From Atriophallophorus winterbourni (taxonomy: Eukaryota > Platyhelminthes > Trematoda > Plagiorchiida > Microphallidae), in assembly GCA_013407085.1 (NCBI GenBank), contig JACCGJ010008482.1, forward strand, positions 62,001-126,000: 64,000 nucleotides of DNA, given 5' to 3'. The notes below the pieces were generated by a model. It made no database searches. It was not told the origin of the DNA and worked only from the letters and a program-made list of their open reading frames with translations. Positions 1-59,178 of the stretch are shown one piece after another (position 1 is the first letter of the stretch; the number at the start of each line of letters is the position of its first letter). The position numbers and the translations under genes were made by a program.

Positions 1-560
1 TAAATCAAAGACCTTCCAAAACTTGTCACAGCCTTTCGTATTAGTGGACGTCTTAAGAATAGCATGCAATTTGAAGCAGTCTACAACCGACCTAGCCGTA
101 TGCTAGGAATGCCTCGGCGTATAATCGAACATTTCTTCCGTGAAACCTTCTCTATTACCATATATACGTATATTAAACCATTAATGGATTAATTAGTGCA
201 AGCTCAGACACCATGGCTGTAAAGGGATATCAAGCTGCTCGAGAGGATTTATCACAGAACAATTAACATAGTTAGCTGTCTTCGCAACCTACAACATTAG
301 AATCGACTTGTTCGTCGTCGCAGACTTGTTCCATTGAATCTAATCCTCACTAAAATGACTCGAAGATAAACCACCCTGTGGAATCTATTTCACCTCCGTG
401 CAAGCCATGTTACACGTACTCGCCCACTGGCATTAGATATTCCACATTCCCACCGGAACTGCCGTCGGTTTTTCTAGTTAGTGCGCGTTTGTTTCTTATG
501 GAACTCCTTACCGTTAAGTGTTGAACAATTATATAGTGAAATAAATGCAATAAAAAATTG
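1..560 (+). pseudogene. CR1-like reverse transcriptase C-terminal relic
   Basis: Conceptual translation across several stops gives the order seen in the C-terminal part of the better preserved CR1-like ORF2 at 53.5-54.1 kb: an F-EAVYN-RMLGMPRRI block, a YTYIKPLMD block, a W-RDIKLLERIYHR block and a terminal VRVCFLWNSLP block. Stops and frameshifts are frequent, so this is a dead fragment. The second copy at 57430-58155 extends further upstream. The family is inferred from block order. No intact catalytic domain is present. Confidence 0.6.
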
Positions 561-618
561 AATATATCTACGCCTAGAAATTCCACCTTACCTCCCGTTT
601 ATAAAGCACGACATTTAT

Positions 619-620
<2 letters not shown>

Positions 621-664
<44 letters not shown>
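621..664. repeat. (TA)n microsatellite
   Basis: An uninterrupted run of TA dinucleotides of about 44 bp. The same tract occurs at 58216-58259 in the second long-repeat copy. Confidence 0.97.
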
Positions 665-667
<3 letters not shown>

Positions 668-1265
668 GAGCGAAAAACAGGTATGACGATGCATATTAAA
701 AATCAATCATCCTATATTTGATTGTAATGAAGTTAAAGAGTTTACTAACAGAGCGCAATCTGAGCTCAGGTGAAATGTTATCAGTATTCTCATTGTTCAA
801 ACCACGCGCCTTGCATTCGAAGAAAATTCTTCAAATTTAAAGATTTTTTCGCAACCTTTTCACAGAGCCTATCTACGTGGTGTATAATCTAAACAACTTG
901 TTGCAACGTGTTGTATATCATGAAATTTGAAAACCAACTTACCAGTCACTTTACCAATTTTCTCAAAATCGACTGAAAATTCCCCATGTGAAGAATAAGA
1001 TAAATCATGAAGTGCACCACAATTTGGTCTCAAAATATGCTAAGATTTCTAGAAAATATACCAAACGAAAATGTGTGCATTATAGTCAAACGTTTATCAT
1101 TCTCTGATTGATAAAGATGTTTTAAATGTGGTGATCGATTTTATGTGTTCGCATTTGGTGTGATGCTCAGTATATTCATGTTTTATGCGCATGCGAATCC
1201 TGATCTTACTGTCCGAACCTGTCAAGTGCTAAAAGCACAGAACTTTTCTTGGGTTGTGTTTGATG

Positions 1266-1500
1266 GGAATGCAAGCAAATGATCATTTTTCGTGACCATG
1301 TGTTGGACATATGTGAATCAACAGCTTCCTTTTTTTTCTTCGCTGTCAGAGTCTGTTTTCTATGGAACTCCCTGCCCCCACATATTACTTGCGCATCAAC
1401 CCTGAACTTGTTCACGGCTGAACTTGACAAATATATGTTGACTAAACCCAACCTCACACCTGAATACACTTGCTGACTTTCCATATTGATAAAAAAGTTG
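1266..1500 (+). pseudogene. CR1-like ORF2 C-terminal tail relic
   Basis: An open frame of 65 codons at 1279-1476 encodes FAVRVCFLWNSLPP followed by LNLFTAELDKYM. This is the characteristic end of CR1-like ORF2 and is comparable to FSVRICFTWNYLPEE and VEVFASKLDEFM at 53.9-54.05 kb. In the second copy (58861-59175) it is followed by a CR1-type 3' end with a TGGTTACTGTTAAG block. Here that end is replaced by unrelated sequence. Catalytic domains are absent. Confidence 0.65.
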
Positions 1501-1809
1501 TGTTATTATGAATTCCTCGTAGCAAACGTATCCAACAGTGTAACACCAATGCATCTATTTACTTTTATACCACTCTGTCAAGAGTAATTGCATCCACATT
1601 CTACTCTCTCTAACTGATGAGTGCAAACAGCACGAAACCGATTTTGTGGTGTTTTTGATAGAAATACATTTGAATAAATTCGTTTTTCGAATATGATTAT
1701 TTTATCGGAATACATTTTGTCTTACCATCACACGTTTCAATTCTTGAGACTGCCAAATAGAAAACAATGGACGGTTTTAACAGAATCAGTAATTGTGTTA
1801 TAACATATA

Positions 1810-3442
1810 CCAAGACCTGTCCTATGTGATAATCATATTGCATTCAGTGTCGATTTCACTAATGATAAATGAAACAAAATGCATTTATAATTTTGAAAGT
1901 GTTGATTGCTTGACCAGCAATAACCTCGATATTCTTTGTATGAGTATACGAAATTTATTTGAAAGAAATCTTGGTGATGATAATTCATGTAAATTAACAT
2001 TCGGTGGTTTGCATTAGTTTTACCAATACTCCTTATTTCATGAGAGTTAGTGTTTAATCGCAACGTTTACAAAGGACTAATCAGCTATGTCCTTCATCTT
2101 TATTACAATATTATGTTCTATATTATAAGTTATCGTAACGAGTTAAGTTTTGAGCTGCTCTGATGTGTTTCTATGAAATTGCAATGTTCATTCATCGCAA
2201 TGCGAATACTCCGAACAAAACAACCATCGGATTTATAAACAGCTGAGCACAACATTAAACATTTCCACTTAAAAAGGAGTACAAAACATGTAGCGTGTGT
2301 AGGCGTAAAGTGAAATATAAACAGAATGATTACGCACCTTCGACCTTTGGGGCTTTTTTCTCTGTGAAAAATGAAGGAATATTTCGTAAATATTAAAAGA
2401 TAATGTCGAATATATGCATAAAATGTAATGTGAAATGTAATAAAAAAAGCTCAATATAAACGATAAAATATTATGCGCTTGGCATTTAATGTTACCATAT
2501 AAATTTGTCGCGCTATTTGCATTGTTCCACTTGATGAATAACACGGCTGTTTTCATCTCGTCCTCTGATTTGTAGGTCAGTTTTTTTCATTAAAACAGAA
2601 GTTATTTGTTGTGGAAATAATACTTTTTATTTTTCATTAAGTGTCGTGGCTCATAGAGCAAGTGATAATGTATTTGTAATCTTTCCATCGAGGTTGCAGA
2701 ATTTATATAACTTTTAAAAAGCTCATTTGCAGTCATTTCAATCACACACATAACACAATGTGAGCAAACGATTAATTAATTAAATTTGTTAAAGTTTTTA
2801 AACTTGAAAATGTTGGTAGTATAATTTAGATATCTTCGATTAAACACTTAAACTGAGCTATATTTAAACATTAATTAGAGCCCGGTGGTCACTTTTTCTT
2901 TTACTACGCTTTGTCATGATGGGCACATACACGCCAATATCAAGCCAAAATTTCGGAGATTATAGTTAGATTATCGCCAGCGAAATGGTTCAAGTAAATG
3001 CATTAACAAAGGTTTGCATTGTTTTACTTGCAAACCCATTGCATTACATTTCATACAACTGACGGCAATATATTGATTCAGTTGTTACAGTGTTCAGTGT
3101 CATAGAATAATTATGTTTGTCATTTAATGCAAGTTAAATGATGCGCTCGTACTTAAAAGTACGTTTATAATAGAACATTTTTTCAACTGTCCCATTGGTT
3201 AATCATGTTTATCGGGCGATATCAGTTGAAACAATTGTGGTTTTTCGATTTATGCTAAAGTGAACGATGATTAATCACTTGATGATGAATCACTTAACAA
3301 TTTTTCAATGTTTTAATTTGAATAAAACATAGAAGTGGAAGAATGGTAAACAAATTCGTTTGTAGACGCTGTTTGTCACAGCCAACATATTCAATCACAT
3401 TTACTCATAAATAATCGATCGGGTAAGCCCCATAATTCGAAC
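1810..3442. repeat. Tandem unit A (about 1.63 kb) inside the long repeat
   Basis: The stretch starting CAAGACCTGTCCTATG recurs at 3443, so 1810-2250 and 3443-3885 are paralogous. The first is a full unit and the second a partial one. The same arrangement exists near 59418-61007 and 61008-61430. A related segment without the flanking tandem lies at 54241-55575. The ORFs inside are short and not conserved, and no function is recognised. Confidence 0.8.
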
Positions 3443-3885
3443 AAGACCTGTCCTATGTGATAATCATATTGCATTCAGTGTCGATTTCACTAATGATAAA
3501 TAAAACAAAATGCATTTATAATTTTAAAAGTGTTGATCGCTTGACCAGCAATAACCTCGATATTCTTTGTATGAGTATACGAAATTTATTTAAAAGAAAT
3601 CTTGGTGATGATAATTCATGTAAATTAACATTCGGTGGTTTGCATTAGTTTTACTAATACTCCTTATTTCATGAGAGTTAGTGTTTAATCGCAACGTTTG
3701 CAAAGGACTAAACAACTATATCCTTCATCTTTATTTCATTATTATGTTCTATATTTTAAGTTATCGTAACGAGTTAAGTTTTGAGCTGCGCTGATGTGTT
3801 TCTATGAAATCGCAATGTTCATTCATCGCAATGCGAATACTCCGAACAAAACAATCATAGGATATATAAACAGCTGTTTCAAATC
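3443..3885. repeat. Partial tandem unit B of the same repeat
   Basis: Matches 1810-2250 closely, then diverges into sequence unique to the right part of the long repeat, which continues to about 5831. Confidence 0.8.
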
Positions 3886-4243
3886 CTGTCTATTAAACTC
3901 TTGAATGCTTGTTTCATAAGTTCATAGTGTATAACCTAATACTTAGAAGTTTGAATTAATCTTACATAAAATGTTTTTATTTAATGCATAAAATGATGAA
4001 AAAATAACACAGAAACTTTATTTCTTTTGTATGGTTGTTGTTTTCAACAAAATGTTTTACTAATTTTGAACAGTCGATAGGTTATGGGCAGATTTAAATG
4101 TGTCCTCTTAGCTTTAAATCGTAAACGGCTACTGATCTGCTTTCGACGTCACATATAATATTTTACATGATGTTTAGTTTCAGGTAAATACATATAAATA
4201 CCTTAGAGTTTCAGATCACCCAAAGTGCAATGTATTTAAAACA

Positions 4244-4386
4244 TTAACCGTTCACAAAAGCTGTGTTTCTAAATCGTGAATGATATGAGTTCGATCCAAC
4301 GGGATTCCAAAGGAAAAGTGTAACTTTACAAAAAGATTGATGGCAGAACCATTGATGGTCCGGTCTGTGAAACCGTTCAACGATAG
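4244..4386 (-). CDS. Candidate second exon of a small secreted peptide gene, copy 1
   Basis: Reading the minus strand after an AG at 4388-4387, a 143-nt stretch supplies the two bases that complete the phase-1 codon left by the signal-peptide exon at 5069-5129. It then runs 46 codons to a TAA at 4246-4244. The predicted part contains QWFC and SFCKVTLF. The paralogous stretch at 61786-61928 is exactly the same length and also open. Weaknesses: the polypyrimidine tract is poor, and most differences between the copies change amino acids, so either fast evolution or a non-coding stretch is possible. Confidence 0.35.
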
Positions 4387-5068
4387 CTATTCCGGGGATC
4401 GGTAACGATAATCACAATAACCAATGTACCCACGGCACATCTGCAGCATCCCCATGAGCAGGGCTACAATAAGGTATTTGTTCACTCTATTATGTATGCC
4501 TTCGGAATCCAAATTTGTTTAAGGTATCCGACTTACTGAAATCAATGTGCGCCACAGACGATTATGCTCGAGTATATTACAGGATGAAGAATGTGAGGCA
4601 AACTCATCCCTATATTTGAAGTGATCACTGTATCCATGAACTACGTAATCGGAGTTTTTGAATACTAAAATCTCGTAAAATTATATTTTCATGCAACATT
4701 CGTTGACGATAAAAAATTTAAATTTTATAAAACTTTCCAATCAATTGGTAAATATACATCATCATATCATACCACTCTGAGTATGCTGATGAGTTAACGA
4801 ATTTTGAAGATCACTAAACCGGGTCGTCAAATGCTAATAATATATGACGGCCAATGCTTCTAATCATCTTTAAAAGCTTGTATCTGTGAATATCCATGTT
4901 CTCCGTATCACTATTGAGCTAAGCTAATCTCGATAGATTTAATCTTAACATGTATGTTTGTTTCAGTCATGTTTTCATGTAAATTGCGCAGATATTGTGA
5001 AGAAATATTCTACGCACATAGTAATGCTTTCAACAAAACGTATGCAGAAAAATTAAACAAAAACTTAC

Positions 5069-5129
5069 GGAATAAACCACCCAGAGCAACCGGAATACAG
5101 ATTACCAGGAATAAGTTCATGCGCAGCAT
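5069..5129 (-). CDS. Candidate first exon: secretion signal peptide, copy 1
   Basis: The minus strand begins with ATG at 5129 and encodes MLRMNLFLVICIPVALGGLF, a basic start followed by a hydrophobic core typical of a secretion signal. The exon ends at a consensus donor (CC then GTAAGT at 5068). The coding part is 61 nt, phase 1. A TATA-like box lies 57-64 bp upstream at 5186-5193. The paralogue at 62609-62669 keeps the same length, start, donor and box. The mature product is not recognised; a candidate second exon lies 682 bp downstream. Confidence 0.55.
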
Positions 5130-5185
5130 TTTCGTGTAATACAACGTGAGTTCGTTCTCAAGATGCGTTCTCACAAAACCTCCTG

Positions 5186-5193
5186 TATATATA
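5186..5193 (-). promoter_or_regulatory. TATA-like box upstream of signal-peptide exon, copy 1
   Basis: TATATATA within GTATATATACGC lies about 60 bp before the ATG at 5129. It is conserved at 62726-62733 in the paralogue. The region upstream of it (about 5200-5340) is also related to 8764-8950. Confidence 0.4.
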
Positions 5194-5974
5194 CGCACAC
5201 ATATATCACAATTGATTTTTCTTCTATGAAGGTTTGCGTTTACTGGTCGTAAGTCAACGGCAGAGTGCACCGATATAGAACAGGTTCATTCTGGTCGATA
5301 GTTCACTTATATCTACAATAACAAAATCATTCAACTTTTCTCGAAGTACCGGAATAACAAATTAAAATTAAAATTGGTGCTGAGACAATTTTACAAGTTT
5401 CATTCATTTACATTAATTAATGTATACGTGTAATTTGTTGAATGCGTTTTCGAAAACAATTTGTAGATTTCCATTTATAATATTTATCTAACAACGTAGA
5501 CGACTTCCGGAAAACACTTCGGTAGAATCTGAGTAAAAACATGGTTTCGTTATATATGCAAATCATGTAATGGCCAATCCAACTTTCTCATCTTGAGAAC
5601 AATTGCTGCCTTAGCCGTGGTGCAAAACATAAAGTTATTTCTGATACACGCTTATAGGTAACACGTTCAAGATGGTGCAGTTTGCGGCTAGAATTGGAGA
5701 ATAATTGCAGCCTCCGTGTAATGGACCGCTAGCCAACTACAGCTGACGGTCAATATGTATTAGTGTTAGCGTGATGCGTTATGCAGGATATTACTCTGGA
5801 TCGCAATCACAAATGATGCAGATTTTGAATTTCGGCAGCTTCACGCATACTGCTACATCGTTTAACTCCTTCTACGAATCACTTTGTGATTCCTTTGTGA
5901 TTTGAACATCGTCGTTCGTTTTAATAACTCTATATAACAGTTGTATACAAGTATTAATCCGTTTACCACGATAT

Positions 5975-12689: not shown

Positions 12690-12812
12690 CATACACTGTG
12701 CTAAACTGATGTGCCATCGGTAGTGAGCTGCATATGAATATACACTGGAGTCTCACTGCTATTGCAATTTTCCTTTACCATATCTGGTTAATCCTGGGCA
12801 ACCTGACAGTAT
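12690..12812 (-). repeat. Short interspersed repeat A, left half interrupted by the satellite
   Basis: Minus-oriented copy of a family present at least eight times between 12 and 29 kb. It contains GCCATCGGTAGTGAGCTG and CTGGAGTCTCACTG and ends at AACCTGACAGTAT. The other half resumes at 16948, so the copy was split by insertion of the satellite block. Confidence 0.85.
12800..12812. repeat. Target-site duplication, left copy
   Basis: AACCTGACAGTAT, identical to 16948-16960. Uninterrupted members of the host repeat have one copy of this segment at the corresponding place. Confidence 0.92.
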
Positions 12813-12961
12813 AAGAACTGAAGTTCTCGTCTACTCGCTACTTTATAAGTAGCTGAAGGGACTAAACTAAGCCCCAACTGATCCAACGGCGCATTGCCGC
12901 GAGGTTTATTACAACCCCAGGATAGATCAGAGTAGAATACCATTCCGAAACGCTAAAATCT

Positions 12962-13022
12962 CACCGGAAGCACAGGACCGGTTTCGAGGTTTTTGCCTCT
13001 CATCAGCTATGCGTATCCGCTG
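12962..13022 (-). ncRNA. Type I hammerhead ribozyme, left unit 1
   Basis: Core CTGATGA and GAAA; helix II GAGG/CCTC with a CAAAAA loop; palindromic helix III ACCGGT; cleavage after GTC; helix I GCATAG/CTGTGC, then an internal loop, then CGG/CCG. Confidence 0.85.
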
Positions 13023-13218
13023 GACTCTTCGCGTTTCGAACTAGTATTTGTGTAGACGGATGGCGTAATAAGAACTGAAGTTCTCGTCTACTCGCTACTT
13101 TATAAGTAGCTGAAGGGACTAAACTAAGCCCCAACTGATCCAACGGCGTATTGCCGCGAGGGTTATTACAACCCCAGGATAGATCAGAGTAGAATACCAT
13201 TCCGAAACGCTAAAATCT

Positions 13219-13279
13219 CACCGGAAGCACAGGACCGGTTTCGAGGTTTTTGCCTCTCATCAGCTATGCGTATCCGCTG
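13219..13279 (-). ncRNA. Type I hammerhead ribozyme, left unit 2
   Basis: Same sequence and fold as unit 1, 257 bp further on. All core bases are intact. Confidence 0.85.
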
Positions 13280-13475
13280 GACTCTTCGCGTTTCGAACTA
13301 GTATTTGTGTAGACGGATGGCGTAATAAGAACTGAAGTTCTCGTCTACTCGCTACTTTATAAGTAGCTGAAGGGACTAAACTAAGCCCCAACTGATCCAA
13401 CGGCGTATTGCCGCGAGGGTTATTACAACCCCAGGATAGATCAGAGTAGAATACCATTCCGAAACGCTAAAATCT

Positions 13476-13536
13476 CACCGGAAGCACAGGACCGGTTTCG
13501 AGGTTTTTGCCTCTCATCAGCTATGCGTATCCGCTG
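13476..13536 (-). ncRNA. Type I hammerhead ribozyme, left unit 3
   Basis: Identical core and helices to unit 1. Confidence 0.85.
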
Positions 13537-13732
13537 GACTCTTCGCGTTTCGAACTAGTATTTGTGTAGACGGATGGCGTAATAAGAACTGAAGTTCTCG
13601 TCTACTCGCTACTTTATAAGTAGCTGAAGGGACTAAACTAAGCCCCAACTGATCCAACGGCGTATTGCCGCGAGGGTTATTACAACCCCAGGATAGATCA
13701 GAGTAGAATACCATTCCGAAACGCTAAAATCT

Positions 13733-13793
13733 CACCGGAAGCACAGGACCGGTTTCGAGGTTTTTGCCTCTCATCAGCTATGCGTATCCGCTG
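13733..13793 (-). ncRNA. Type I hammerhead ribozyme, left unit 4
   Basis: Identical core and helices to unit 1. The following spacer differs slightly (GGCGCAATGTGAATCG). Confidence 0.85.
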
Positions 13794-13989
13794 GACTCTT
13801 CGCGTTTCGAACTAGTATTTGTGTAGACGGATGGCGCAATGTGAATCGAAGTTCTCGTCTACTCGCTACTTTATAAGTAGCTGAAGGGACTAAACTAAGC
13901 CCCAACTGATCCAACGGCGTATTGCCGCGAGGGTTATTACAACCCCAGGCTAGTTCGAAGTAGAATACCATTCCGAAACGCTAAAATCT

Positions 13990-14050
13990 CACCGGAAGCA
14001 CAGGACCGGTTTCGAGGTTTTTGCCTCTCATCAGCTATGCGTATCCGCTG
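13990..14050 (-). ncRNA. Type I hammerhead ribozyme, left unit 5
   Basis: Identical core and helices to unit 1. Confidence 0.85.
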
Positions 14051-14241
14051 GACTCTTCGCGTTTCGAACTAGTATTTGTGTAGACGGATGGCGTAATAAA
14101 CTGAAGTTCACGTCTACTCCGCTACTTTATAAGTAGTGAAGGACTAACTAAGCCCCAACTAGATCCACCCGCGTGTGCCGCGAGGTTAGACAACCCCAGG
14201 ATCGCTCAGAGTAGAATAACCATTCCGAAACAGCTAAAATC

Positions 14242-14308
14242 TCCCAAGCAGCACAGGCACCGTTTCGAGTTTTTGCCATCTCTCAGCTATGCGTTATCCA
14301 CGCTGGAC
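14242..14308 (-). pseudogene. Broken hammerhead, left unit 6
   Basis: The core reads with insertions and deletions (CTGAGAGATGG-like in place of CTGATGAGAGG, and helix III altered), inside the indel-rich unit 14095-14360. It is not expected to fold correctly. Confidence 0.8.
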
Positions 14309-14506
14309 ATCTTTGGCGTTTTCGGAACTAGTATTTGTTGTAGACGGATGGGCGTAATGTGAACTGAAGTTCTCGTCTACTCGCTACTTTTAAGTAGCTG
14401 AAGGGACAAAACTATGCCCCAACTGATCCAACGGCGTTTTGCCGCGAGGGTTATTACAACCCCAGGATAGATCAGAGTAGAATACCATTCCGAAACGCTA
14501 AAATCT

Positions 14507-14567
14507 CACCGGAAGCACAGGACCGGTTTCGAGGTTTTTGCCTCTCATCAGCTATGCGTATCCGCTG
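14507..14567 (-). ncRNA. Type I hammerhead ribozyme, left unit 7
   Basis: Core and helices intact. The base differences lie outside the core. Confidence 0.85.
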
Positions 14568-14763
14568 GACTCTTGGCGTTTCGAACTAGTATTTGTGTAG
14601 ACGGATGACGTAATAAGAACTGAAGTTCTCGTCTACTAGCTACTTTATAAGTAGCTGAAGGGACTAAACTAAGCCCCAACTGATCCAACGGCGTATTGCC
14701 GCGAGGGTTATTACAACCCCAGGATAGATCAGAGTAGAATACCATTCCGAAACGCTAACATCT

Positions 14764-14824
14764 CACCGGAAGCACAGGACCGGTTTCGAGGTTGTTGCCT
14801 CTCATCAGCTATGCGTATCCGCTG
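14764..14824 (-). ncRNA. Type I hammerhead ribozyme, left unit 8
   Basis: Core intact. Loop II reads CAACAA instead of CAAAAA, and helix II is unchanged. Confidence 0.82.
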
Positions 14825-14988
14825 GACTCTTCGCGTTTCGAACTAGTATTTGTGTAGACGGATTGAGCAATGTGAACTGAAGTTCGCGTCTACTCGCTAC
14901 TTTATAAGTAGCTGAAGGGACTAAACTAAGCCCCAACTGATCCAACGGCGTATTGCCGCGAGGGTTATTACAACCCCAGGGTAGATCA

Positions 14989-14995
14989 GAGTAGA
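14989..14995. other. Head-to-head inversion junction of the satellite
   Basis: The left block breaks off inside its unit at GATCAGAGTAGA, and the right block starts at GAGTAGACGAG. The shared GAGTAGA belongs to two different places of the unit, so the two orientations meet at a 7-base microhomology. Confidence 0.85.
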
Positions 14996-15059
14996 CGAGA
15001 ACTTCAGTTCTTATTACGCCATCCGTCTACACAAATACTAGTTCGAAACGCCAAGAGTC

Positions 15060-15120
15060 CAGCGGATACGCATAGCTGATGAGAGGCAAAAACCTCGAAA
15101 CCGGTCTTGTGCTTCCGGTG
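15060..15120 (+). ncRNA. Type I hammerhead ribozyme, right unit 1
   Basis: Core intact. The first base after the cleavage site is T instead of C, giving a G-T pair at the base of helix I. Confidence 0.8.
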
Positions 15121-15316
15121 AGATGTTAGCGTTTCGGGATGGTATTCTACTCTGATCTATCCTGGGGTTGTAATAACCCTCGCGGCAATACGCCGTTGGA
15201 TCAGTTGGGGCTTAGTTTAGTCCCTTCAGCTACTTATAAAGTAGCGAGTAGACGAGAACTTCAGTTCAAATTACGCCATCCGTCTACACAAATACGAGTT
15301 CGAAACGCGAAGAGTC

Positions 15317-15377
15317 CAGCGGATACGCATAGCTGATGAGAGGCAAACACCTCGAAACCGGTCCTGTGCTTCCGGTG
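15317..15377 (+). ncRNA. Type I hammerhead ribozyme, right unit 2
   Basis: Core intact. Loop II reads CAAACA. Confidence 0.82.
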
Positions 15378-15575
15378 AGATGTGTACGTTTCGGAATGGG
15401 TATTTCTACTGTGATCTATCCTGGGGTTGTAATAACCCTCGCGGCATTACGCCGTTGGATCAGTTGGGGCTTAGTTTAGTCCCTTCAGCTACTTCTAAAG
15501 TAGCGAGTAGACGAGAACTTCAGTTCTTATTACGCCATCCGTCTACACAAATACTAGTTCGAAACGCGAAGAGTC

Positions 15576-15636
15576 CAGCGGATACGCATAGCGGATGAGA
15601 GGCAAAAACCTCGAAACCGGTCCTGTGCTTCCGGTG
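15576..15636 (+). pseudogene. Hammerhead with a core mutation, right unit 3
   Basis: The core reads CGGATGA instead of CTGATGA at 15592, changing an invariant base. The rest is intact, so this unit should not self-cleave. Confidence 0.8.
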
Positions 15637-15832
15637 AGATTTTAGCGTTTCGGAATGGTATTCTACTTTGAACTATCCAGGGGTTGTAATAACCCTCGCG
15701 GCAATACGCCGTTGGATCAGTTGGGGCTTAGTTTAGTCCCTTCAGCTACTTATAAAGTAGCGAGTAGACGAGAACTTCAGTTCACATTGCGCCATCCGTC
15801 TACCCAAATACTAGTTCGAAACGCGAAGAGTC

Positions 15833-15893
15833 CAGCGGATACGCATAGCTGATGAGAGGCAAAAACCTCGAAACCGGTCCTGTGCTTCCGGTG
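15833..15893 (+). ncRNA. Type I hammerhead ribozyme, right unit 4
   Basis: All core bases and helices as in the consensus. Confidence 0.85.
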
Positions 15894-16089
15894 AGATTTT
15901 ATCGTTTCGGAATGGTATTCTACTTCGAACTAGCCCGGGGTTGTAATAACTCTCGCGGCAACAAGCCGTTCGATCAGTTGTGGCTTAGTTTAGTCCCTTC
16001 AGCTACTTATAAAGTAGCGAGTAGACGCGAACTTCGATTCACATTGCGCCATCCGTCTACACAAATACTAGTTCGAAACGCGAAGAGTC

Positions 16090-16149
16090 CAGCGGATACG
16101 CATAGCTGATGAGAGGCAAAAACCTCGAAACCGTCCTGTGCTTCCGGTG
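16090..16149 (+). ncRNA. Hammerhead ribozyme with shortened helix III, right unit 5
   Basis: Core intact, but one G is missing from the ACCGGT helix III, which removes its palindromic symmetry. Activity may be reduced. Confidence 0.65.
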
Positions 16150-16350
16150 AGATTCTAGCGTTCGAAAGGTATATTCTGAACTATCCTGGGGTTGGAATAA
16201 CCCTCGCGGCAATACGCCGTTGGATCAGTTGGGGCTTAGTTCAGTCCCTTCAGCTACTTATAAAGTAGCGAGTAGACGAGAACTTCAGTTCATATTGCGC
16301 CATCCGTCTACACAAATACTAGTTCGAAACGCCAAGAGTCCAGCGGATAC

Positions 16351-16411
16351 GCATAGCTGATGAGAGGCAAAAACCTCGAAACCGGTCCTGTGCTTCCGGT
16401 GAGATTTTAGC
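16351..16411 (+). ncRNA. Type I hammerhead ribozyme, right unit 6
   Basis: Consensus core and helices. Confidence 0.85.
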
Positions 16412-16595
16412 GTTTCGGAATGGTATTCTACTCTGATCTATCCTGGGTTGTATAACCCTCGCGGCAATACGCCGTTGGATCAGTTGGGGCTTAGTTTAGT
16501 CCCTTCAGCTACTTATAAAGTAGCGAGTAGACGAGAACTTCAGTTCTTATTACGCCATCCGTCTACACAAATACTAGTTCGAAACGCGAAGAGTC

Positions 16596-16656
16596 CAGCG
16601 GATACGCATAGCTGATGAGAGGCAAAAACCTCGAAACCGGTCCTGTGCTTCCGGTG
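16596..16656 (+). ncRNA. Type I hammerhead ribozyme, right unit 7
   Basis: Consensus core and helices. Confidence 0.85.
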
Positions 16657-16852
16657 AGATTTTAGCGTTTCGGAATGGTATTCTACTCTGATCTATCCTG
16701 GGGTTGTAATAACCCTCGCGGCAATACGCCGTTGGATCAGTTGGGGCTTAGTTTAGTCCCTTCAGCTACTTATAAAGTAGCGAGTAGACGAGAACTTCAG
16801 TTCTTATTACGCCATCCGTCTACACAAATACTAGTTCGAAACGCCAAGAGTC

Positions 16853-16913
16853 CAGCGGATACGCATAGCTGATGAGAGGCAAAAACCTCGAAACCGGTCC
16901 TGTGCTTCCGGTG
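16853..16913 (+). ncRNA. Type I hammerhead ribozyme, right unit 8
   Basis: Consensus core and helices. The predicted cleavage lies between 16899 and 16900. Confidence 0.85.
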
Positions 16914-16947
16914 AGATTTTAGCGTTTCGAAATGGTATTCTACTCTG

Positions 16948-16960
16948 AACCTGACAGTAT
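16948..16960. repeat. Target-site duplication, right copy
   Basis: AACCTGACAGTAT, identical to 12800-12812. Confidence 0.92.
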
Positions 16961-17032
16961 CTCAGCCAACGTGCAGTCTAAAAACTGTGCGGCACTTTCC
17001 CTGGATCAGGCTTGTGATTCCATTGTATACTA
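16948..17032 (-). repeat. Short interspersed repeat A, right half
   Basis: Continues the copy begun at 12690: CTCAGCCAACGTGCAGTC, ACTGTGCGGCACTTT and GGATCAGGCTTGTG, as in the undisturbed copies at 25.9 and 26.7 kb. Confidence 0.88.
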
Positions 17033-17307
17033 AAACAACCCGATTTTTACAATGAACAATTTGTATTTCTGACAGAGAATTTCAATGTATACAGAAGCAA
17101 ATTTTATACAACTTGAAAATTTGGTATCACGAGTTCCAGTGTATCAGTCCTTTTCTCTTCTTCTTTTCAACGATCGTTCAGCTGGAAACGAAAAACTCAC
17201 GGCTAGGCAAGAGGCGTCGAAACGCAAGGCAATAAAGAAAACGACAAAACAATGAGCAGTTTGCGGCTGATGACTGCTTGGATAGTTCCACTACGGTATG
17301 AACGAAG
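17033..17307. other. No gene recognised
   Basis: AT-rich sequence with no supported ORF or repeat. Confidence 0.4.
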
Positions 17308-25480: not shown

Positions 25481-25899
25481 TCAGTTTACAAATCGGTGAC
25501 AGTCAATTCCACAAGTCGTTAGCTGAAAATAACCAGCGCTCCAGATGCATACAGTATCGCATTTTAACTCAGAAAAACACACAACACAGAACAAAAAAGT
25601 GAAAACGCTGGAAGGGACTCACAGCATCCGACCAATCCTCGTTCAATGGCTGTTGTGCATCATACTCCAGTTGGAACAGGCTCCCGTGCAGTAATTGCTC
25701 CAACTGAGAACGAAAAAAAAGCACCCATGGGGGGGGGTAAGAAAACACACGAATTAGTCGGAGTCACAGACGATACAGATGCGTGTTCAAAACCCACAGC
25801 ATATGTACAGTTCTTGATCCAAGCATACTTAGGTCAAATGTGGGAACCGAGAGTAGTTAGCAGAGAAATAACTGTGTGGCTAACATCGTGCTAAATTGA

Positions 25900-26060
25900 T
25901 TGGTCACCAGTAGTGGGCGGCATGCAGAAACTGGCTGGAGTCTCACTACCTTTTCTATTTCTTTTCTCATATCTGTCTAGGCCTCGACAACCTGGCAATA
26001 AGCCCACGTGCAGTCTCTGACTGTGCGGCACTTTGCCTGGATCAAGCTTGTGTGCTTCAC
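25900..26060 (-). repeat. Short interspersed repeat A
   Basis: CACCAGTAGTGGGCGGC, CTGGAGTCTCACTACC, TAGGCCTCGACAACCTG and GTGCGGCACTTTGCC in the family order. It is an intact reference for the site where the satellite is inserted in the 12.7/16.9 kb copy. Confidence 0.88.
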
Positions 26061-26069
26061 ATTACACAC

Positions 26070-26225
26070 AAACATGAAACCACAAGCCTGATCAAGGAAC
26101 AGTGTCCCACAGTCACAGACTGCATGTGAGTTAAGTCAATGTCATGTTGCACATGCCTGAAAAGAGAATGAAAATTGAAATTGAAGTGAGAATTCAGCTC
26201 ACTACCGGTGGCAGATGGATTTAGT
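26070..26225 (+). repeat. Short interspersed repeat A, inverted next to the previous copy
   Basis: ACCACAAGCCTGATCAAGG, AGACTGCATGTGAG, CATGTTGCAC and CTCACTACCGGTGGC. It lies tail to tail with the 25.9-kb copy, about 10 bp apart. Confidence 0.82.
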
Positions 26226-26649: not shown

Positions 26650-26810
26650 CGAACACAGTGCTAAGCTGATATGACACCAGTAGTGAGATGAAGTCTGTTT
26701 TCTGTTTTCATTCTCATATTTGTATAGGCCTGGGGAGCTTGACAGCATCTTAGCTCACATGCGGTCTATGACTGTGCGGCACTAAATGGATCAGGCTTGT
26801 GGCTTCACAC
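26650..26810 (-). repeat. Short interspersed repeat A
   Basis: GATATGACACCAGTAGTGAG, TAGGCCTGGGGAGCTTGAC, CAGCATCTTAGCTCACATG and GTGCGGCAC in the family order. Confidence 0.82.
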
Positions 26811-29726: not shown

Positions 29727-29960
29727 GTAGGACGGAAGCACACGACCGCTTCCACGGTTACTGCCGCTCATCAGGTATGCGTATCCGTGACCTGATAATT
29801 CTTACGCCGATCTGACTTTGTGATAAACCCATTTATATTTGCGAATTCGAGGATAAATTCTCATTTGCAAATTGAAGTTTAGCTTTTATGTGGAGACTAT
29901 TCTAAGTCCCACAGTTGGTAGCAACGGGCTAGTCTAATTCTGTTTACGAAATGAAACCCA
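29727..29960 (-). mobile_element. Diverged single satellite-type unit
   Basis: Contains a hammerhead at 29731-29790. At the expected distance (135 versus 125 bp in the array) it has TCTAAGTCCCACAGTTGG, comparable to ACTAAGCCCCAACTGATCC of the satellite unit. It is a solitary relative, not part of the array, and is much diverged outside the ribozyme. Confidence 0.6.
29731..29790 (-). ncRNA. Diverged hammerhead with compensatory changes
   Basis: Minus strand: ACGG, ATAC, GCATAC, CTGATGA, helix II GCGG/CCGT, GGAA, GCGGTC, then GTGTGC, TT and CCGT. Helix I GCATAC/GTGTGC replaces GCATAG/CTGTGC of the satellite by a swapped pair, and ACGG/CCGT pairs without the mismatch seen in the satellite. GGAA replaces GAAA, so it is probably inactive now. 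Confidence 0.65.
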
Positions 29961-34068: not shown

Positions 34069-35031
34069 CGTGAAATTTCTTGTTATAAATACGGACGTAC
34101 AGGCCACCTGGCAACATTTTGTCGCCAAAATCAAACTTCGCGATTCAGACGCACCTCAAATGTTGTTTTTGCCGCAAATTGTGCTCAATTCCAGAGTCTG
34201 CGCAAATTCATCACTCTTGAGATTAATGACCACCCAGTCAGATTGCAAATCGACAGTGCCTCAGATATAACCATTATTTCCCGTCAGACTTGGATTGTAA
34301 TCGGAAAACCACCAATGATCCCAACAGCTCGAATCGCCAAGAATGCTTCTGGTGGAGATATACATTTTCTTGGTGAGTTGAAATGCAAGGTCAAGTTTTG
34401 TGATCAAAATCTACTCGGCACATGCTATGTATCAGCTAGCGACAAGCTAAATCGTTTTGGCATTGACTGGATAGAAGAGCTCAAACTATGGGATGTACCA
34501 TTCAATAGTGTTTGCGATGACTCTGTTGAAGTTACTCATGCCATCGACAAAAATGTGTACACTATACATCCAGTGGAGCTTAAAAGCACCGAAGAACTTA
34601 TGTGTCATTTTCAATCGAAATATCCAAAGGTATTTTGTGAAGGATTGGGCCTCTGCAACAAAGCTGATGCAGTCTTATACTTACAACCGGGAACACGTCC
34701 AGTTTCTCGTCTAAAGAGACCAGTACCTTATTCTGCTTTGGAGGCTGTGGAGAAGGAGTTAGAACGCTTAGTCAAGGAAGGTGTCTTGAGTCCAGTGACA
34801 TATTTATCAAGGGCTGCACCAATTGTGGCAGTGAGAAAACCAAACGGAACACTGAGGATTTGCGCAGATTTTTCCACCGGGCTATATGGCTCACTGGAGA
34901 CACACCAATATCCATTACCGACCCCAGAGGATCTATTCTCGCTGATGAATGGCGAGAAAATATTTTCAAAGGTTGACCACTCTGATGCATTATACAAGTT
35001 CCAGTTTGTGAGAAATCGAAAGAGATGCTAA
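34069..35031 (+). pseudogene. Gypsy element 2: protease and RT N-terminal part
   Basis: Continuing the gag frame, the protease-like motif IDSASDITIISRQTW starts near 34246, with D-S-A in place of the usual D-T/S-G. The linker and RT start follow: LKRPVPYSALEAVEKELERL, RAAPIVAVRKPNGTLRICAD, and FSKVDHSDALYKFQ, where the first catalytic Asp block is present. The frame breaks near 35005-35030. Confidence 0.83.
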
Positions 35032-36539
35032 CCATCAACACACACAAAGGGTTGTATCGTTATAATCGTCTGCCTTTCGGAGTCAAATGCGCTCCGGCAA
35101 TCTTTCAGCAAATAATGGACACCATGCTGCCCGGATTATCCTTTGCTAAAGCCTATATGGATGATATCATCGTATCTAGCCAGAATCGCGAAGAACATTA
35201 TGATCAATTAAACCAACTTTTCACAATCATAGAGGAGTACGGTTTTCGTGTCAGGCCAGAAAAATGCACTCTAATGACAGACACTATAACCTACTTGGGA
35301 TCAATAATTAATCATGAAGGTAGACGACCTGATCCAGACAAAATCAAGGCGATCAGAGACACGCCACCACCTCACAACGTAGCGACATTGCAGTCTTTTC
35401 TTGGCCTGGTAAATTATTATCAAAACTTTGTATCAAAAATGCACGAACTTCGAGCACCACTAAATTATCTATTAACGAAAAACAGCAAATGGTCTTGGTC
35501 AAATGAATGTCAGCGCTCTTTCAACAGAATAAAGGATATCTTGTCGACTGATCTACTGCTAACACACTACGATCCAAAACTACCCATTATCGTTGCAGCA
35601 GATGCATCACAAAATGGAATCGGCGCCGTACTGTTGCATAAATATCCTGATGGAAAACAAAAAGCCGTCATGCACGTATCCAGAACATTAACAGCTGCTG
35701 AAAGGAATTACAGTCAAATCGAGAAAGAAGGGTTGGCCCTCGTCTTTGCCGTTAACAAGTTCCATAAAATGATTCACGGACGAAAGTTTACCTTATTCAC
35801 TGATCATAAGTCACTGTTGGTAATATTTGGTGCGAAGAAGGGGATACCTGTACATACAGCAAATCGAGTACAACGCTGGGCAACACAATTATTGTCGTAT
35901 GATTTTGACCTCCGATACAAGTGTACCAGCAACTTCGGTCACGCTGATGCACTCTCAAGGCTCATTGCGGACATTGGTTCTCGATCCCAAAATGTAGAAT
36001 TGGTAGTGCCTTCTGTTTCAGCAGACCCGATGTACCATGTTTTCAACGCAAGCGTCAGACATCTTCCAATAACGGCAGCAACAGTTTGCAAGGCAACCGC
36101 AGACGATCAAACACTACAACAAGTTATGCAATTCCAACAAAACGGCTGGCCTGAGCAAATCACTGATCCATATCTCAAGCAGTTTTCTAGTCGCCAATTC
36201 GCACTATCCATCGTTGATGGCTGTCTTATGTTACACGATCGAGTAGTCATTCCCAAAGCTGTACAACATTTTGTTCTTCGACAATTACATCAGGGTCATC
36301 CTGGTATCAGTCGGATGAAAGCGCTTAGCGGGAACTATGCATTTTGGCCCTTCATGGACCGTGAGATCGAAAACATGATGCGCTCATGCTACAGTTGTGC
36401 TGAAGCAGCCAAATTACCTCCGAAATGTAAACCACAACCCTGGCCTGTTCCATCGGGACCATGGAAACATATTCATGCAGACTTTGCAGGACCCTTGAAT
36501 GGGATACACTATTTGGTCATTGTTGACGCCTATTCATAA
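35025..36539 (+). pseudogene. Gypsy element 2: RT, RNase H and integrase N-terminal part
   Basis: 504 codons open. RT blocks YRYNRLPFGVKCAPAIFQQI and AYMDDIIVSS (catalytic YMDD, about residues 42-51) are followed by TYLGSIINHEGRRPDPDKI, RNase H (VAADASQNGIGAVLL, TLFTDHKSLL, HADALSRLI) and the integrase zinc module HQGHPGISRM...SCYSCAE. It ends in HADFAGPLNG and a TAA at 36537-36539 directly inside the integrase core. Confidence 0.9.
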
Positions 36540-51900: not shown

Positions 51901-51947
51901 GGCAACCGCTGTAGAGGGTATACAATACCTGGCACCACTGGGGAAGA

Positions 51948-53237
51948 GTGATCATGTTGTGCTTTTGTTTGATTGCGGAACGATTGTGTGAACAGACGAA
52001 AGTCATAAGGAAAATACATTTTGAATCCTTAAATATCTGTCTCCGGGATGCATACACTCATGAGTTTGATTCAATGGATCCTGGCTCATATTACAATTCG
52101 TTTCTAAATTATCTCAATTCTAAGATTTACGAAAACTCGATTTTTGTATCACACAAATGCAGCTACAACAACCAGTTTGTTATTCGGAGTAGAACGAAGA
52201 AATGGTTAGCTGTTAAGCGAGAGTCTTGGGTAACTCATAAGAAGTTTGGTACGGAAGAAAATTGGAAGCGATTCTGTAAGATACGGAATAACGTCACGAC
52301 TCTTGTAAGAGAAGATCGCATGCAATTCCAATGGAACTTGCTGAAAAGAATGGAAAAGAATCAAAAGCTTCTCTACAAGATAGTAAATGAACGATCAAAG
52401 ATCAAACCAGGTGTATTCTCTGTACTAACGCCTCATGGATTGACCCACACTGCCCAAGATACCGCCGACGCTTTAGCAACGTATTACTCATTTGTCTTCA
52501 ATCCCAAGCGTTGTATACCATATCACGTTTCATCAAGTTCACCACATTTCGAATTATTAAGTGAAATGACTATCAACGAATACATGGTTGGGCGGGAACT
52601 TTGTCGACTAAACGAAAAGAAGTCCCCTGGCGCAGACAAAATTACCCCCGCCGTACTTCGCAGGTGTTGCGTTGCTTTGACTGCTCCTCTCACTCGCATA
52701 TTCAATCTCAGCTTAAACGAAGGAAAAATACCACCGCAATCGAAAGCAGGGATGATAACTCCTATTTATAAAGGCGGTAGCCGTTCAGACACAACCTATA
52801 GACCGGTAACGTTACTTCCGGTGATCTCCAAATTAATGGCACTCATTGTGACTGCGCGCATGAGAGAACATTTTGAAAACCAAAATATTTTGACCGCAGC
52901 ACAACACGGTTTTCGAAGAGGTCGTTGCTGTTTATCTAACCTTCTAACAACGTTCGAGGATTGGACCAAGGCACTAGACGAAGGTGAGGCTGTACATGTT
53001 TGCTACATCGATATTTCCAAAGCTCTCGATAGAGTCAACCATGACATCCTAATTAAAAAGCTCGAATCCTATGGAATAACGGGAATATTGCTGAATTGGA
53101 TAAGGGACTATCTTACTGATAGACACGTCCAAGTTCGCGTTGGCAGCACCTTATCTAGAAAAATAGACGTTACGAGTGGAGTTCGCAAGGCTCGGTGCTT
53201 GGACCTCTTCTATTCTTGGTGTATATCAACGATATAG
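51948..53237 (+). pseudogene. CR1-like ORF2: linker and RT N-terminal half
   Basis: 429 codons. Linker FGTEENWKRFCKIRNNVTTL, then RT blocks LNEKKSPGADKITPAVLRRC, KAGMITPIYKGGSRS, YRPVTLLPVISKLMALIV, AAQHGFRRGRCCLSNLLTTF and VCYIDISKALDRVNHDILIK, where the first catalytic Asp is present. Near 53180 the frame shifts, so the next block is read in the following segment. Comparison with copy A (7.69 kb) indicates loss of one base. Confidence 0.87.
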
Positions 53238-57429: not shown

Positions 57430-58155
57430 TGCTCATTAGCACATCCAGGAGGTTTTTATTGATGGGTGCCTTCTGACCTGTCTAATGAGATACCTTTTAA
57501 TCGCAAGGCAACTGTACGTTTGGATGGTGTGATGGATAGGGAACTAGAAATCACTTGGGCTGTCATTTGTACTTGCTCCCGTTCTCTTTATGGACTAAAT
57601 CAAAGACCTTCCAAAACTTGTCACAGCCTTTCGTATTAGTGGACGTCTTAAGAATAGCATGCAATTTGAAGCAGTCTACAACCGACCTAGCCGTATGCTA
57701 GGAATGCCTCGGCGTATAATCGAACATTTCTTCCGTGAAACCTTCTCTATTACCATATATACGTATATTAAACCATTAATGGATTAATTAGTGCAAGCTC
57801 AGACACCATGGCTGTAAAGGGATATCAAGCTGCTCGAGAGGATTTATCACAGAACAATTAACATAGTTAGCTGTCTTCGCAACCTACAACATTAGAATCG
57901 ACTTGTTCGTCGTCGCAGACTTGTTCCATTGAATCTAATCCTCACTAAAATGACTCGAAGATAAACCACCCTGTGGAATCTATTTCACCTCCGTGCAAGC
58001 CATGTTACACGTACTCGCCCACTGGCATTAGATATTCCACATTCCCACCGGAACTGCCGTCGGTTTTTCTAGTTAGTGCGCGTTTGTTTCTTATGGAACT
58101 CCTTACCGTTAAGTGTTGAACAATTATATAGTGAAATAAATGCAATAAAAAATTG
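57430..58155 (+). pseudogene. CR1-like C-terminal relic, copy 2
   Basis: The counterpart of 1-560 with about 165 additional upstream bases, which read as a very degenerate RT segment (LIRYLF..., VRLDGVMDRELEITW). The near-identical repeat begins in the middle, at 57596 or earlier, since copy 1 starts at the window edge. Confidence 0.55.
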
Positions 58156-58213
58156 AATATATCTACGCCTAGAAATTCCACCTTACCTCCCGTTTATAAA
58201 GCACGACATTTAT

Positions 58214-58262
<49 letters not shown>

Positions 58263-59090
58263 GAGCGAAAAACAGGTATGACGATGCATATTAAAAATCA
58301 ATCATCCTATATTTGATTGTAATGAAGTTAAAGAGTTTACTAACAGAGCGCAATCTGAGCTCAGGTGAAATGTTATCAGTATTCTCATTGTTCAAACCAC
58401 GCGCCTTGCATTCGAAGAAAATTCTTCAAATTTAAAGATTTTTTCGCAACCTTTTCACAGAGCCTATCTACGTGGTGTATAATCTAAACAACTTGTTGCA
58501 ACGTGTTGTATATCATGAAATTTGAAAACCAACTTACCAGTCACTTTACCAATTTTCTCAAAATCGACTGAAAATTCCCCATGTGAAGAATAAGATAAAT
58601 CATGAAGTGCACCACAATTTGGTCTCAAAATATGCTAAGATTTCTAGAAAATATACCAAACGAAAATGTGTGCATTATAGTCAAACGTTTATCATTCTCT
58701 GATTGATAAAGATGTTTTAAATGTGGTGATCGATTTTATGTGTTCGCATTTGGTGTGATGCTCAGTATATTCATGTTTTATGCGCATACGAATCCTGATC
58801 TTACTGTCCGAACCTGTCAAGTGCTAAAAGCACAGAACTTTTCTTGGGTTGTGTTTGATGGGAATGCAAGCAAATGATCATTTTTCGTGACCATATGTTG
58901 GACATATGTGAATCAACAGCTTCTTTTTTTTTCTTCGCTGTCAGAGTCTGTTTTCTATGGAACTCCCTGCCCCCACATATTACTTGCGCATCAACCCTGA
59001 ACTTGTTCACGGCTGAACTTGACAAATATATGTTGACTAAACCCAACCTCACACCTGAATACACTTGCTGACTTTCCATATTGATAAAAC
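57596..59090. repeat. Near-identical long direct repeat, copy 2
   Basis: Counterpart of 1-1495. Confidence 0.95.
58216..58259. repeat. (TA)n microsatellite
   Basis: Same tract as 621-664. Confidence 0.97.
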
Positions 59091-59178
59091 AGTTGTGTTA
59101 TTTTTATGCCTTCCCTATATTTTTAATCTGTGGTTACTGTTAAGTATTTACTTTTTGGACCATTAAAATTTGAATTGA
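58861..59178 (+). pseudogene. CR1-like ORF2 tail with its 3' end, copy 2
   Basis: The same frame as 1279-1476, here followed by the family 3' end: CTGTGGTTACTGTTAAGTA, then CCATTAAAATTTGAATTGAA, ending in short TTGAA-type repeats. Confidence 0.7.

What the first reader, a model, noticed from the sequence alone, without database searches (positions are those of the whole stretch)
12813..16947. Satellite whose every unit encodes a type I hammerhead ribozyme
Sixteen units of about 257 bp each hold CTGATGA, a GAGG/CCTC helix II, GAAA, palindromic helix III ACCGGT, a GTC cleavage site and a two-part helix I (GCATAG/CTGTGC, then CGG/CCG across an internal loop able to contact loop II). Fourteen of sixteen cores look intact. 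This matches the known architecture of dimer-acting hammerheads in Penelope-like elements and animal retrozymes, but I cannot tell whether this family has been reported. Expected product: 257-nt self-cleaved, possibly circular RNAs.
Basis: partly seen in the sequence, partly recalled or inferred. Interest (0 to 1): 0.95.

Follow-up and report, generated by a model that had tools for sequence, protein, structure and literature searches.

The report
Head-to-head hammerhead retrozyme insertion in fluke
A 4.1-kb jumping-gene insertion in what looks like a parasitic flatworm genome is made of repeats predicted to produce self-cutting RNAs, and its two halves point outward in opposite directions inside one short target duplication, which hints that both cut DNA ends were used to copy the RNA into the chromosome.

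Summary
Rfam's HH9 hammerhead model matches 15 of 16 (E 5e-8 to 1e-5 over the whole window), all below its curated cut-off. Helix III is the palindrome ACCGGU with no loop, like dimer-acting newt/axolotl ribozymes.
(1) There are two arrays, head-to-head: left-arm ribozymes on the minus strand, right-arm on the plus strand. (2) The whole is one insertion in a host interspersed repeat, flanked by a perfect 10-13-bp target-site duplication; six copies of that repeat without the insertion (69-80% identity) lie elsewhere in the window. (3) The arms meet at a 7-bp microhomology, end at different unit phases, and are not ordered copies of each other.
I file it as a non-LTR retrozyme, probably of a digenean trematode. 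Best-supported mechanism: target-primed reverse transcription of retrozyme RNA from both cut strands, most likely by a Penelope-like enzyme. Template and enzyme are inferred; other genomic copies could not be searched. The kind is known; I found no head-to-head single-duplication form in the papers I could see.

The parts
12800..12812 (.). left target-site duplication AACCTGACAGTAT (10-13 bp; up to 3 bases in all are ambiguous with the element ends)
12811..14995 (-). left arm: about 8.5 units of 257 bp, ribozyme on minus strand, 8 hammerhead boundaries, 7 with intact core
14989..16948 (+). right arm: about 7.6 units, ribozyme on plus strand, 8 hammerhead boundaries, 6 with intact core
14989..14995 (.). 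head-to-head junction, 7-bp microhomology GAGTAGA between the two arms
16851..16922 (+). example of an intact type I hammerhead; predicted cleavage after the GTC that ends at 16899
16948..16960 (.). right target-site duplication AACCTGACAGTAT
14097..14352 (-). about one unit's length with many single-base insertions, deletions and substitutions between near-consensus neighbours, resembling unpolished long-read sequence; masked in the substitution analyses

Best explanation
A non-autonomous non-LTR retrozyme. Multimeric transcripts of such arrays are expected to cut themselves at each GUC, probably by pairs of hammerheads joined through the palindromic helix III, giving 257-nt highly folded RNAs that are ligated into circles (inferred from anatomy and from published animal retrozymes). 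For this copy, an endonuclease made a staggered break with 10-13-nt 3' overhangs, and each overhang primed reverse transcription of retrozyme RNA. Each priming gave a tandem cDNA several units long; the two cDNA ends were joined through a 7-nt microhomology. That yields two arms with the RNA 5' sides meeting in the middle and the 3' sides at the flanks, inside one target-site duplication. A Penelope-like enzyme is the likeliest agent, because a purified one is reported to cut and extend both strands and to start inside the template, and because head-to-head copies with short duplications are reported for such elements. Shown here: ribozyme anatomy, orientations, duplication, sites without the insertion, microhomology, arms that are not ordered copies. 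Inferred: the RNA template, its circularity, priming from both ends, the enzyme.
For: Hammerhead matches and 13 of 16 intact cores. The same 13 bases at both flanks; 6 of the 14 matches of the joined flanks cross the joining point, at 69-80% identity, 5 of them without a gap there. Orientation is what two-sided priming predicts: the plus strand of the left arm and the minus strand of the right arm are both antisense, i.e. cDNA continuing from each overhang. Outer ends lie at unit positions 165 and 49, inner ends at 40 and 140, so no shared terminus or 3' tail. Microhomology of 7 or more is expected at 0.0015 of breakpoint pairs. Arms are not ordered copies: mismatch 0.034-0.057 at nine offsets against 0.041 +/- 0.005 for random pairing; yet 12 of 59 distinct substitutions occur in both arms, so they drew on one pool of variants. 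The sense circle folds far better than 300 shuffles (z -6.95), the antisense little (z -1.84). PMC11167929 (main text read): a Penelope-like protein cleaves and extends both strands and initiates internally. PMC3846280 (passages): head-to-head as the most frequently observed inverted arrangement, with duplications of 8-10 bp where present. PMC2912911 (abstract and sections 8, 13): inversion is rare for sequences mobilised in trans by primate L1 (1 of 5554 Alu, 4 of 477 SVA).
Against: One locus only; the own-genome search did not complete (13 of 13 tries). No Penelope-like gene was found, but only 10 of the 19 ORFs of 150 aa or more were scanned with Pfam and the scan of 1-5829 failed. Units L4 and R4, both fifth from the centre, share nine substitutions (all nine of L4), and the three central offsets lie 1.1-1.6 standard deviations below random pairing, so some ordered resemblance of the arms is not excluded. 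Variants shared between arms mean that a single monomer circle cannot have templated either whole arm; template switching or a multimeric linear RNA is needed. In the Penelope-like in vitro system the start site did not differ between strands, whereas here the two outer ends do. PMC11167929 also reports that hammerhead cleavage is not needed for insertion and sees no reads ending at the cut site. PMC3846280 explains head-to-head copies by self-priming on an antisense template, and some of its inverted copies have no duplication. About one unit looks badly assembled, so copy number is uncertain. The best inactive duplex of two ribozymes (-45.2 kcal/mol) is more stable than the active dimer (-35.5).
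Confidence: 0.57

Rival explanations
1. Same retrozyme, but mobilised by a LINE: ordinary target-primed reverse transcription plus twin priming, in which the second-strand overhang primes inside the same RNA.
For: ORFs with RVT_1 and Exo_endo_phos domains, LINE-like, lie in the window (proteins 7-10). Twin priming gives inverted copies flanked by duplications (PMC2837659, start of abstract in a listing only). PMC4918200 (passages) compares 15-bp duplications of a sea anemone retrozyme with LINE mobilisation.
Against: Inversions are rare for sequences that L1 moves in trans, though that is one primate LINE. No common 3' end or tail at the two outer ends.
Confidence: 0.2
2. Snap-back or self-priming: one cDNA (or antisense template) folded on itself and was copied into the second arm.
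For: Gives the same head-to-head form; self-priming on an antisense template is proposed for Penelope-like elements in PMC3846280 (passages). L4 and R4 share a nine-substitution haplotype.
Against: The second arm would be an ordered copy of the first. Order-matched mismatch is not significantly below random pairing at any of nine offsets. The junction is a 7-bp microhomology, not a palindrome. Later mutation or conversion could blur this.
Confidence: 0.1
3. A single-orientation array inserted first, and part of it was inverted later, or two arrays recombined.
For: Satellite-like arrays rearrange (general knowledge).
Against: The inversion would have to break exactly at the duplication boundary; the flank duplication is perfect and the paralogues suggest no loss of host bases.
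Confidence: 0.06
4. A foldback-type DNA transposon with long inverted repeats made of tandem units, in which the hammerhead is a passenger.
For: Such elements have long inverted repeats of subrepeats and duplications near 9 bp (recalled, no call).
Against: The two outer ends have different sequences (unit positions 165 and 49), so no common terminus for a transposase; no ORF of 150 aa or more.
Confidence: 0.02
5. Assembly artefact: a fold-back chimera of one array.
For: About one unit looks unpolished, and inner units vary more than outer ones.
Against: The two flanks are different sequences that join as in six paralogues, and the arms differ in their variants.
Confidence: 0.05

Closest known systems
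Metazoan non-LTR retrozymes (Cervera and de la Pena 2020, PMC7229834; parts 1-4 of 6 read)
   Same: tandem units of a few hundred bp with one type I hammerhead each, GC under 50%, duplications longer than 4 bp, highly self-paired predicted RNA
   Different: two arms head-to-head inside one duplication; the words inverted, opposite, head-to-head, orientation and antisense occur 0 times in that main text
Axolotl/newt satellite hammerheads (HHR_Amex1; PMC7229834; PMC6155905 passages)
   Same: very weak helix III: one pair capped by a palindromic tetraloop, expected to act as a dimer
   Different: here the unit is 257, not about 330, bp and the host is probably a flatworm
Schistosoma SMalpha / W-elements (PMC8490949, passages and section 11)
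   Same: trematode repeats with type I hammerheads, mobile character suspected
   Different: SMalpha is described as SINE-like, and schistosome repeats as holding a tRNA (PMC4918200 passages); no tRNA was found in this element. No sequence comparison with SMalpha was made
Penelope-like elements (PMC11167929 main text; PMC3846280 passages)
   Same: head-to-head inverted ends, tandem units, short duplications (8-10 bp there, 10-13 here); hammerheads
   Different: no ORF of 150 aa or more in this insertion; their hammerheads are described as minimal variants (PMC7229834)
Rfam Hammerhead_HH9 (RF02275)
   Same: best model for 15 of 16 boundaries; shared core and CAAAAA loop II
   Different: all under the curated cut-off; five model positions at helix III/its loop are absent here

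Membership tests
Metazoan non-LTR retrozyme | tandem repeat of about 150-450 bp, each unit with a type I hammerhead | tested here: met
   (13 of 16 cores intact)
Metazoan non-LTR retrozyme | unit GC below 50% (text of PMC7229834; its figure 1 legend says below 45%) | tested here: met
   GC 0.471: meets the text's limit, not the legend's
Metazoan non-LTR retrozyme | non-coding | tested here: met
   no stop-to-stop ORF of 150 aa or more overlaps 12811-16948; shorter ORFs not examined
Metazoan non-LTR retrozyme | target-site duplication longer than the 4 bp of plant retrozymes | tested here: met
   10-13 bp, with insertion-free paralogues
Metazoan non-LTR retrozyme | highly self-paired circular RNA predicted | tested here: met
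   z -6.59 of 200 shuffles, -6.95 of 300
Metazoan non-LTR retrozyme | expression as linear and circular monomers; self-cleavage | not testable with these tools
   needs RNA
Metazoan non-LTR retrozyme | no LTR, primer binding site or polypurine tract | not tested
   no scan for these motifs was run
Penelope-like element | ORF with reverse transcriptase and GIY-YIG endonuclease | tested here: not met
   no ORF of 150 aa or more inside the insertion
Penelope-like element | head-to-head inverted arrangement with short duplication (8-10 bp in PMC3846280 passages) | tested here: met
   head-to-head; duplication 10-13 bp, at or slightly above that range
Terminal-inverted-repeat DNA transposon | same sequence at both outer ends | tested here: not met
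   outer ends at unit positions 165 and 49
Schistosoma SMalpha-type SINE | tRNA-derived part | tested here: not met
   0 tRNA genes in 12700-17100 by ARAGORN; a degenerate tRNA could be missed

The most novel reading that the evidence does not exclude
This locus is the footprint of a two-sided, target-primed copying of small ribozyme RNAs: both 3' overhangs of one staggered break each primed multi-unit reverse transcription, by a Penelope-like enzyme, probably on circular templates with switches between circles. It would name the mobilising machinery of animal retrozymes and explain how circles become tandem DNA. The monomer circle may be kept intact because the first three bases of its CUGAUGA core are predicted paired (P 0.98-0.99), so that only multimeric transcripts, through dimeric hammerheads, would be cut.
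Probability: 0.3. Interest if true: 0.82.

Novelty: new variant of a known kind. Interest (0 to 1): 0.6.

Why it matters
Which reverse transcriptase moves animal retrozymes, and how a circular RNA becomes a tandem DNA array, are treated as unsettled in PMC7229834 (parts 1-4 read) and PMC7761336 (passages). An insertion with intact boundaries, insertion-free paralogous sites and a head-to-head form is direct evidence about that step, and the form resembles Penelope-like elements. It makes a testable prediction: a sizeable share of retrozyme copies in animal genomes should be head-to-head inside one short duplication.

Tried and rejected
Own-genome search for further copies: not completed. Collection scans with the exact core (viral contigs; genome contigs) and a looser pattern (viral contigs) each gave 0 matches; these hold viral, bacterial and archaeal DNA, so this says little about other flukes. 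No collection of animal genomes was searched.

RNA-level constraint from where substitutions fall: 59 distinct substitutions avoid paired bases of the sense circle (p 0.002), but the antisense control gives the same (p 0.0004), and the 14 seen in two or more units alone do not (p 0.21), so I do not use it. By effect on the predicted pairs: 29 unpaired, 7 kept, 23 broken against 19.4, 8.3, 31.3 expected; same caveat.

Internal pol III promoter: one sense B-box-like match, GTTCGAAAC, no sense A box; too weak to claim.

A copied-mirror origin, later inversion, a foldback transposon and an assembly chimera were considered and ranked low (see rivals).
Full report
What is there. Tandem Repeats Finder splits the region into two 257-bp arrays, 12811-14995 and 14989-16948. 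Cut at the predicted cleavage site they give 18 pieces, 14 complete units and 4 end pieces, with 16 unit boundaries. Each boundary carries a type I hammerhead, on the minus strand in the left array and on the plus strand in the right. Thirteen of 16 have intact CTGATGA, GAAA and GGTC (7 of 8 left, 6 of 8 right). Rfam's HH9 model matches 15 of 16 with E 3.6e-9 to 7.5e-7 in the 4.4-kb stretch and 5.2e-8 to 1.1e-5 over the window, all under its cut-off of 52 bits; the scan at curated thresholds gave none. So it is beyond chance, but no match reaches a curated Rfam threshold.

Ribozyme design. Helix I is GCAUAG/CUGUGC, then an internal loop and CGG/CCG; helix II is GAGG/CCUC with loop CAAAAA; helix III is ACC/GGU with no loop bases. 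As a single strand the active fold with a one-pair helix III has -7.6 kcal/mol against -21.7 for the best fold. The active double hammerhead reaches -35.5, but the best inactive duplex is -45.2, so energy shows that the dimer helps, not that the active dimer dominates. The design resembles HHR_Amex1 of axolotl, for which PMC7229834 (parts 1-4 of 6 read) reports poor cleavage alone and efficient cleavage as a dimer. In the predicted 257-nt circle the first three core bases are paired with P 0.98-0.99, and the helix I pairs have P 0.19-0.29, so the monomer circle may be inactive; this is a prediction. The sense circle has -95.6 kcal/mol against -63.0 +/- 4.7 for 300 shuffles (z -6.95), the antisense -68.4 against -60.0 +/- 4.6 (z -1.84).

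It is an insertion. AACCTGACAGTAT stands at 12800-12812 and again at 16948-16960. Two bases on the left and one on the right could belong to the element, so the duplication is 10-13 bp. With the flanks joined in a script, 6 of the 14 matches elsewhere in the window cross the joining point: 22086-21905, 25888-26052, 17700-17608, 28889-28735, 26715-26801 and 26197-26074, at 69-80% identity; the second has a 4-base gap right at the joining point, the other five have none there. The insertion therefore sits in a host interspersed repeat, with no loss of host bases that these paralogues show.

Two arms, not ordered copies. The arms meet at GAGTAGA, a 7-bp match between the two phases; breakpoint pairs give 7 or more with P 0.0015. 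Outer ends lie at unit positions 165 and 49, inner ends at 40 and 140. With 14097-14352 masked, 59 distinct substitutions were found, 14 in two or more units and 12 in both arms. Aligning the units of the arms in order at nine offsets gives mismatch rates 0.034-0.057; random pairing gives 0.041 +/- 0.005, smallest of 2000 0.027. The three central offsets lie 1.1-1.6 standard deviations below that mean, and L4 and R4 share all nine substitutions of L4, so I say 'not an ordered copy', not 'unrelated in order'. The outermost full units are the most uniform: L5, L6 and L7 equal the consensus, R7 has one difference and R6 five; inner units vary more. Unequal crossing-over would rather homogenise the middle (general knowledge). 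Poor polishing of inner units may contribute.

How it likely works. If both 3' overhangs of one staggered break prime cDNA synthesis on retrozyme RNA, the left arm's plus strand and the right arm's minus strand are both antisense, the RNA 5' sides meet in the middle, and one duplication flanks the whole. That is what is seen. PMC11167929 (main text read) reports that a purified Penelope-like protein cleaves and extends both strands, which it contrasts with R2 and human L1, and starts inside the template; it also reports the same start site on both strands, and no need for hammerhead cleavage. PMC3846280 (passages) calls head-to-head the most frequently observed inverted form, gives duplications of 8-10 bp (none in some copies), and proposes antisense self-priming, which the arms here do not favour. 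For L1, inversion is rare in trans: 1 of 5554 Alu and 4 of 477 SVA insertions (PMC2912911, abstract and sections 8 and 13). The enzyme is an inference. So is circularity of the template: runs of identical units fit a circle copied several times, while variants shared between distant units require several templates or a multimer.

Host. The reverse transcriptase ORF at 51915-53234 had 42 listed relatives; those named are a Candidatus Thiodiazotropha MAG, Paragonimus, Dicrocoelium (two), Spirometra and Echinostoma; the six best are unnamed. The gypsy-type ORF at 34986-36536 (120 of 2812 relatives listed) is closest to a protein filed under Myotis brandtii (61%), then to Dicrocoelium; Schistosoma, nematode and mosquito proteins follow. 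I recall, from no call, that the Myotis assembly is suspected of fluke contamination. A digenean trematode is likely, not shown. Ten of 19 ORFs of 150 aa or more were scanned with Pfam; none had a GIY-YIG domain at E 0.001.

Known or new. Type I hammerhead repeats in flatworms are known (PMC8490949, passages and section 11; PMC7229834). I saw no mention of head-to-head retrozymes: the main text of PMC7229834 has none of five orientation words, and the listings of searches (25 of 31 papers; 20 of 50; 10 of 10; 2 of 2; 5 of 1,109; 9 of 9; 3 of 3; 10 of 199) show none by title or abstract start. Most subscription papers are not held, including the Penelope hammerhead paper I asked for. Whether the sequence family itself is new was not testable. 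So: a known kind, in a structural variant with mechanistic content.

Limits. One locus; own-genome search unanswered in 13 of 13 tries; no RNA data; about one unit looks like assembly error.

Noticed in passing
29733-29787 (-): A solo, decayed hammerhead, 84% identical over 55 bp to the unit's ribozyme (GAAA reads GGAA); no other part of the unit matched there at E 1. Perhaps another retrozyme family sharing the ribozyme.
   Followed up: partly
1608-1659 (+), with a copy of the core at 59280 (+): Weak Hammerhead_1 match (26.6 bits, cut-off 34, E 0.031) and the same core in the second copy of a duplicated repeat; the cleavage side looks imperfect.
   Followed up: partly
6085 (-): A loose hammerhead-like core, CTGATGATGCAAACAGTCCGAAATCGGTA; may be chance.
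   Followed up: no
14097-14352: About one unit's length with many single-base insertions, deletions and substitutions between near-consensus neighbours (the two pieces it falls in show 38 and 39 differences), as in unpolished long reads.
   Followed up: partly
1-1507 and 57596-59102: 99.7% identical over 1507 bp, followed by further 92-93% matches up to 5829 and 63382; a large recent duplication or repeat.
   Followed up: no
26016-26117 (+): Weak mir-1972 match (31.9 bits, cut-off 90, E 0.026), probably chance, in the host interspersed repeat.
   Followed up: no
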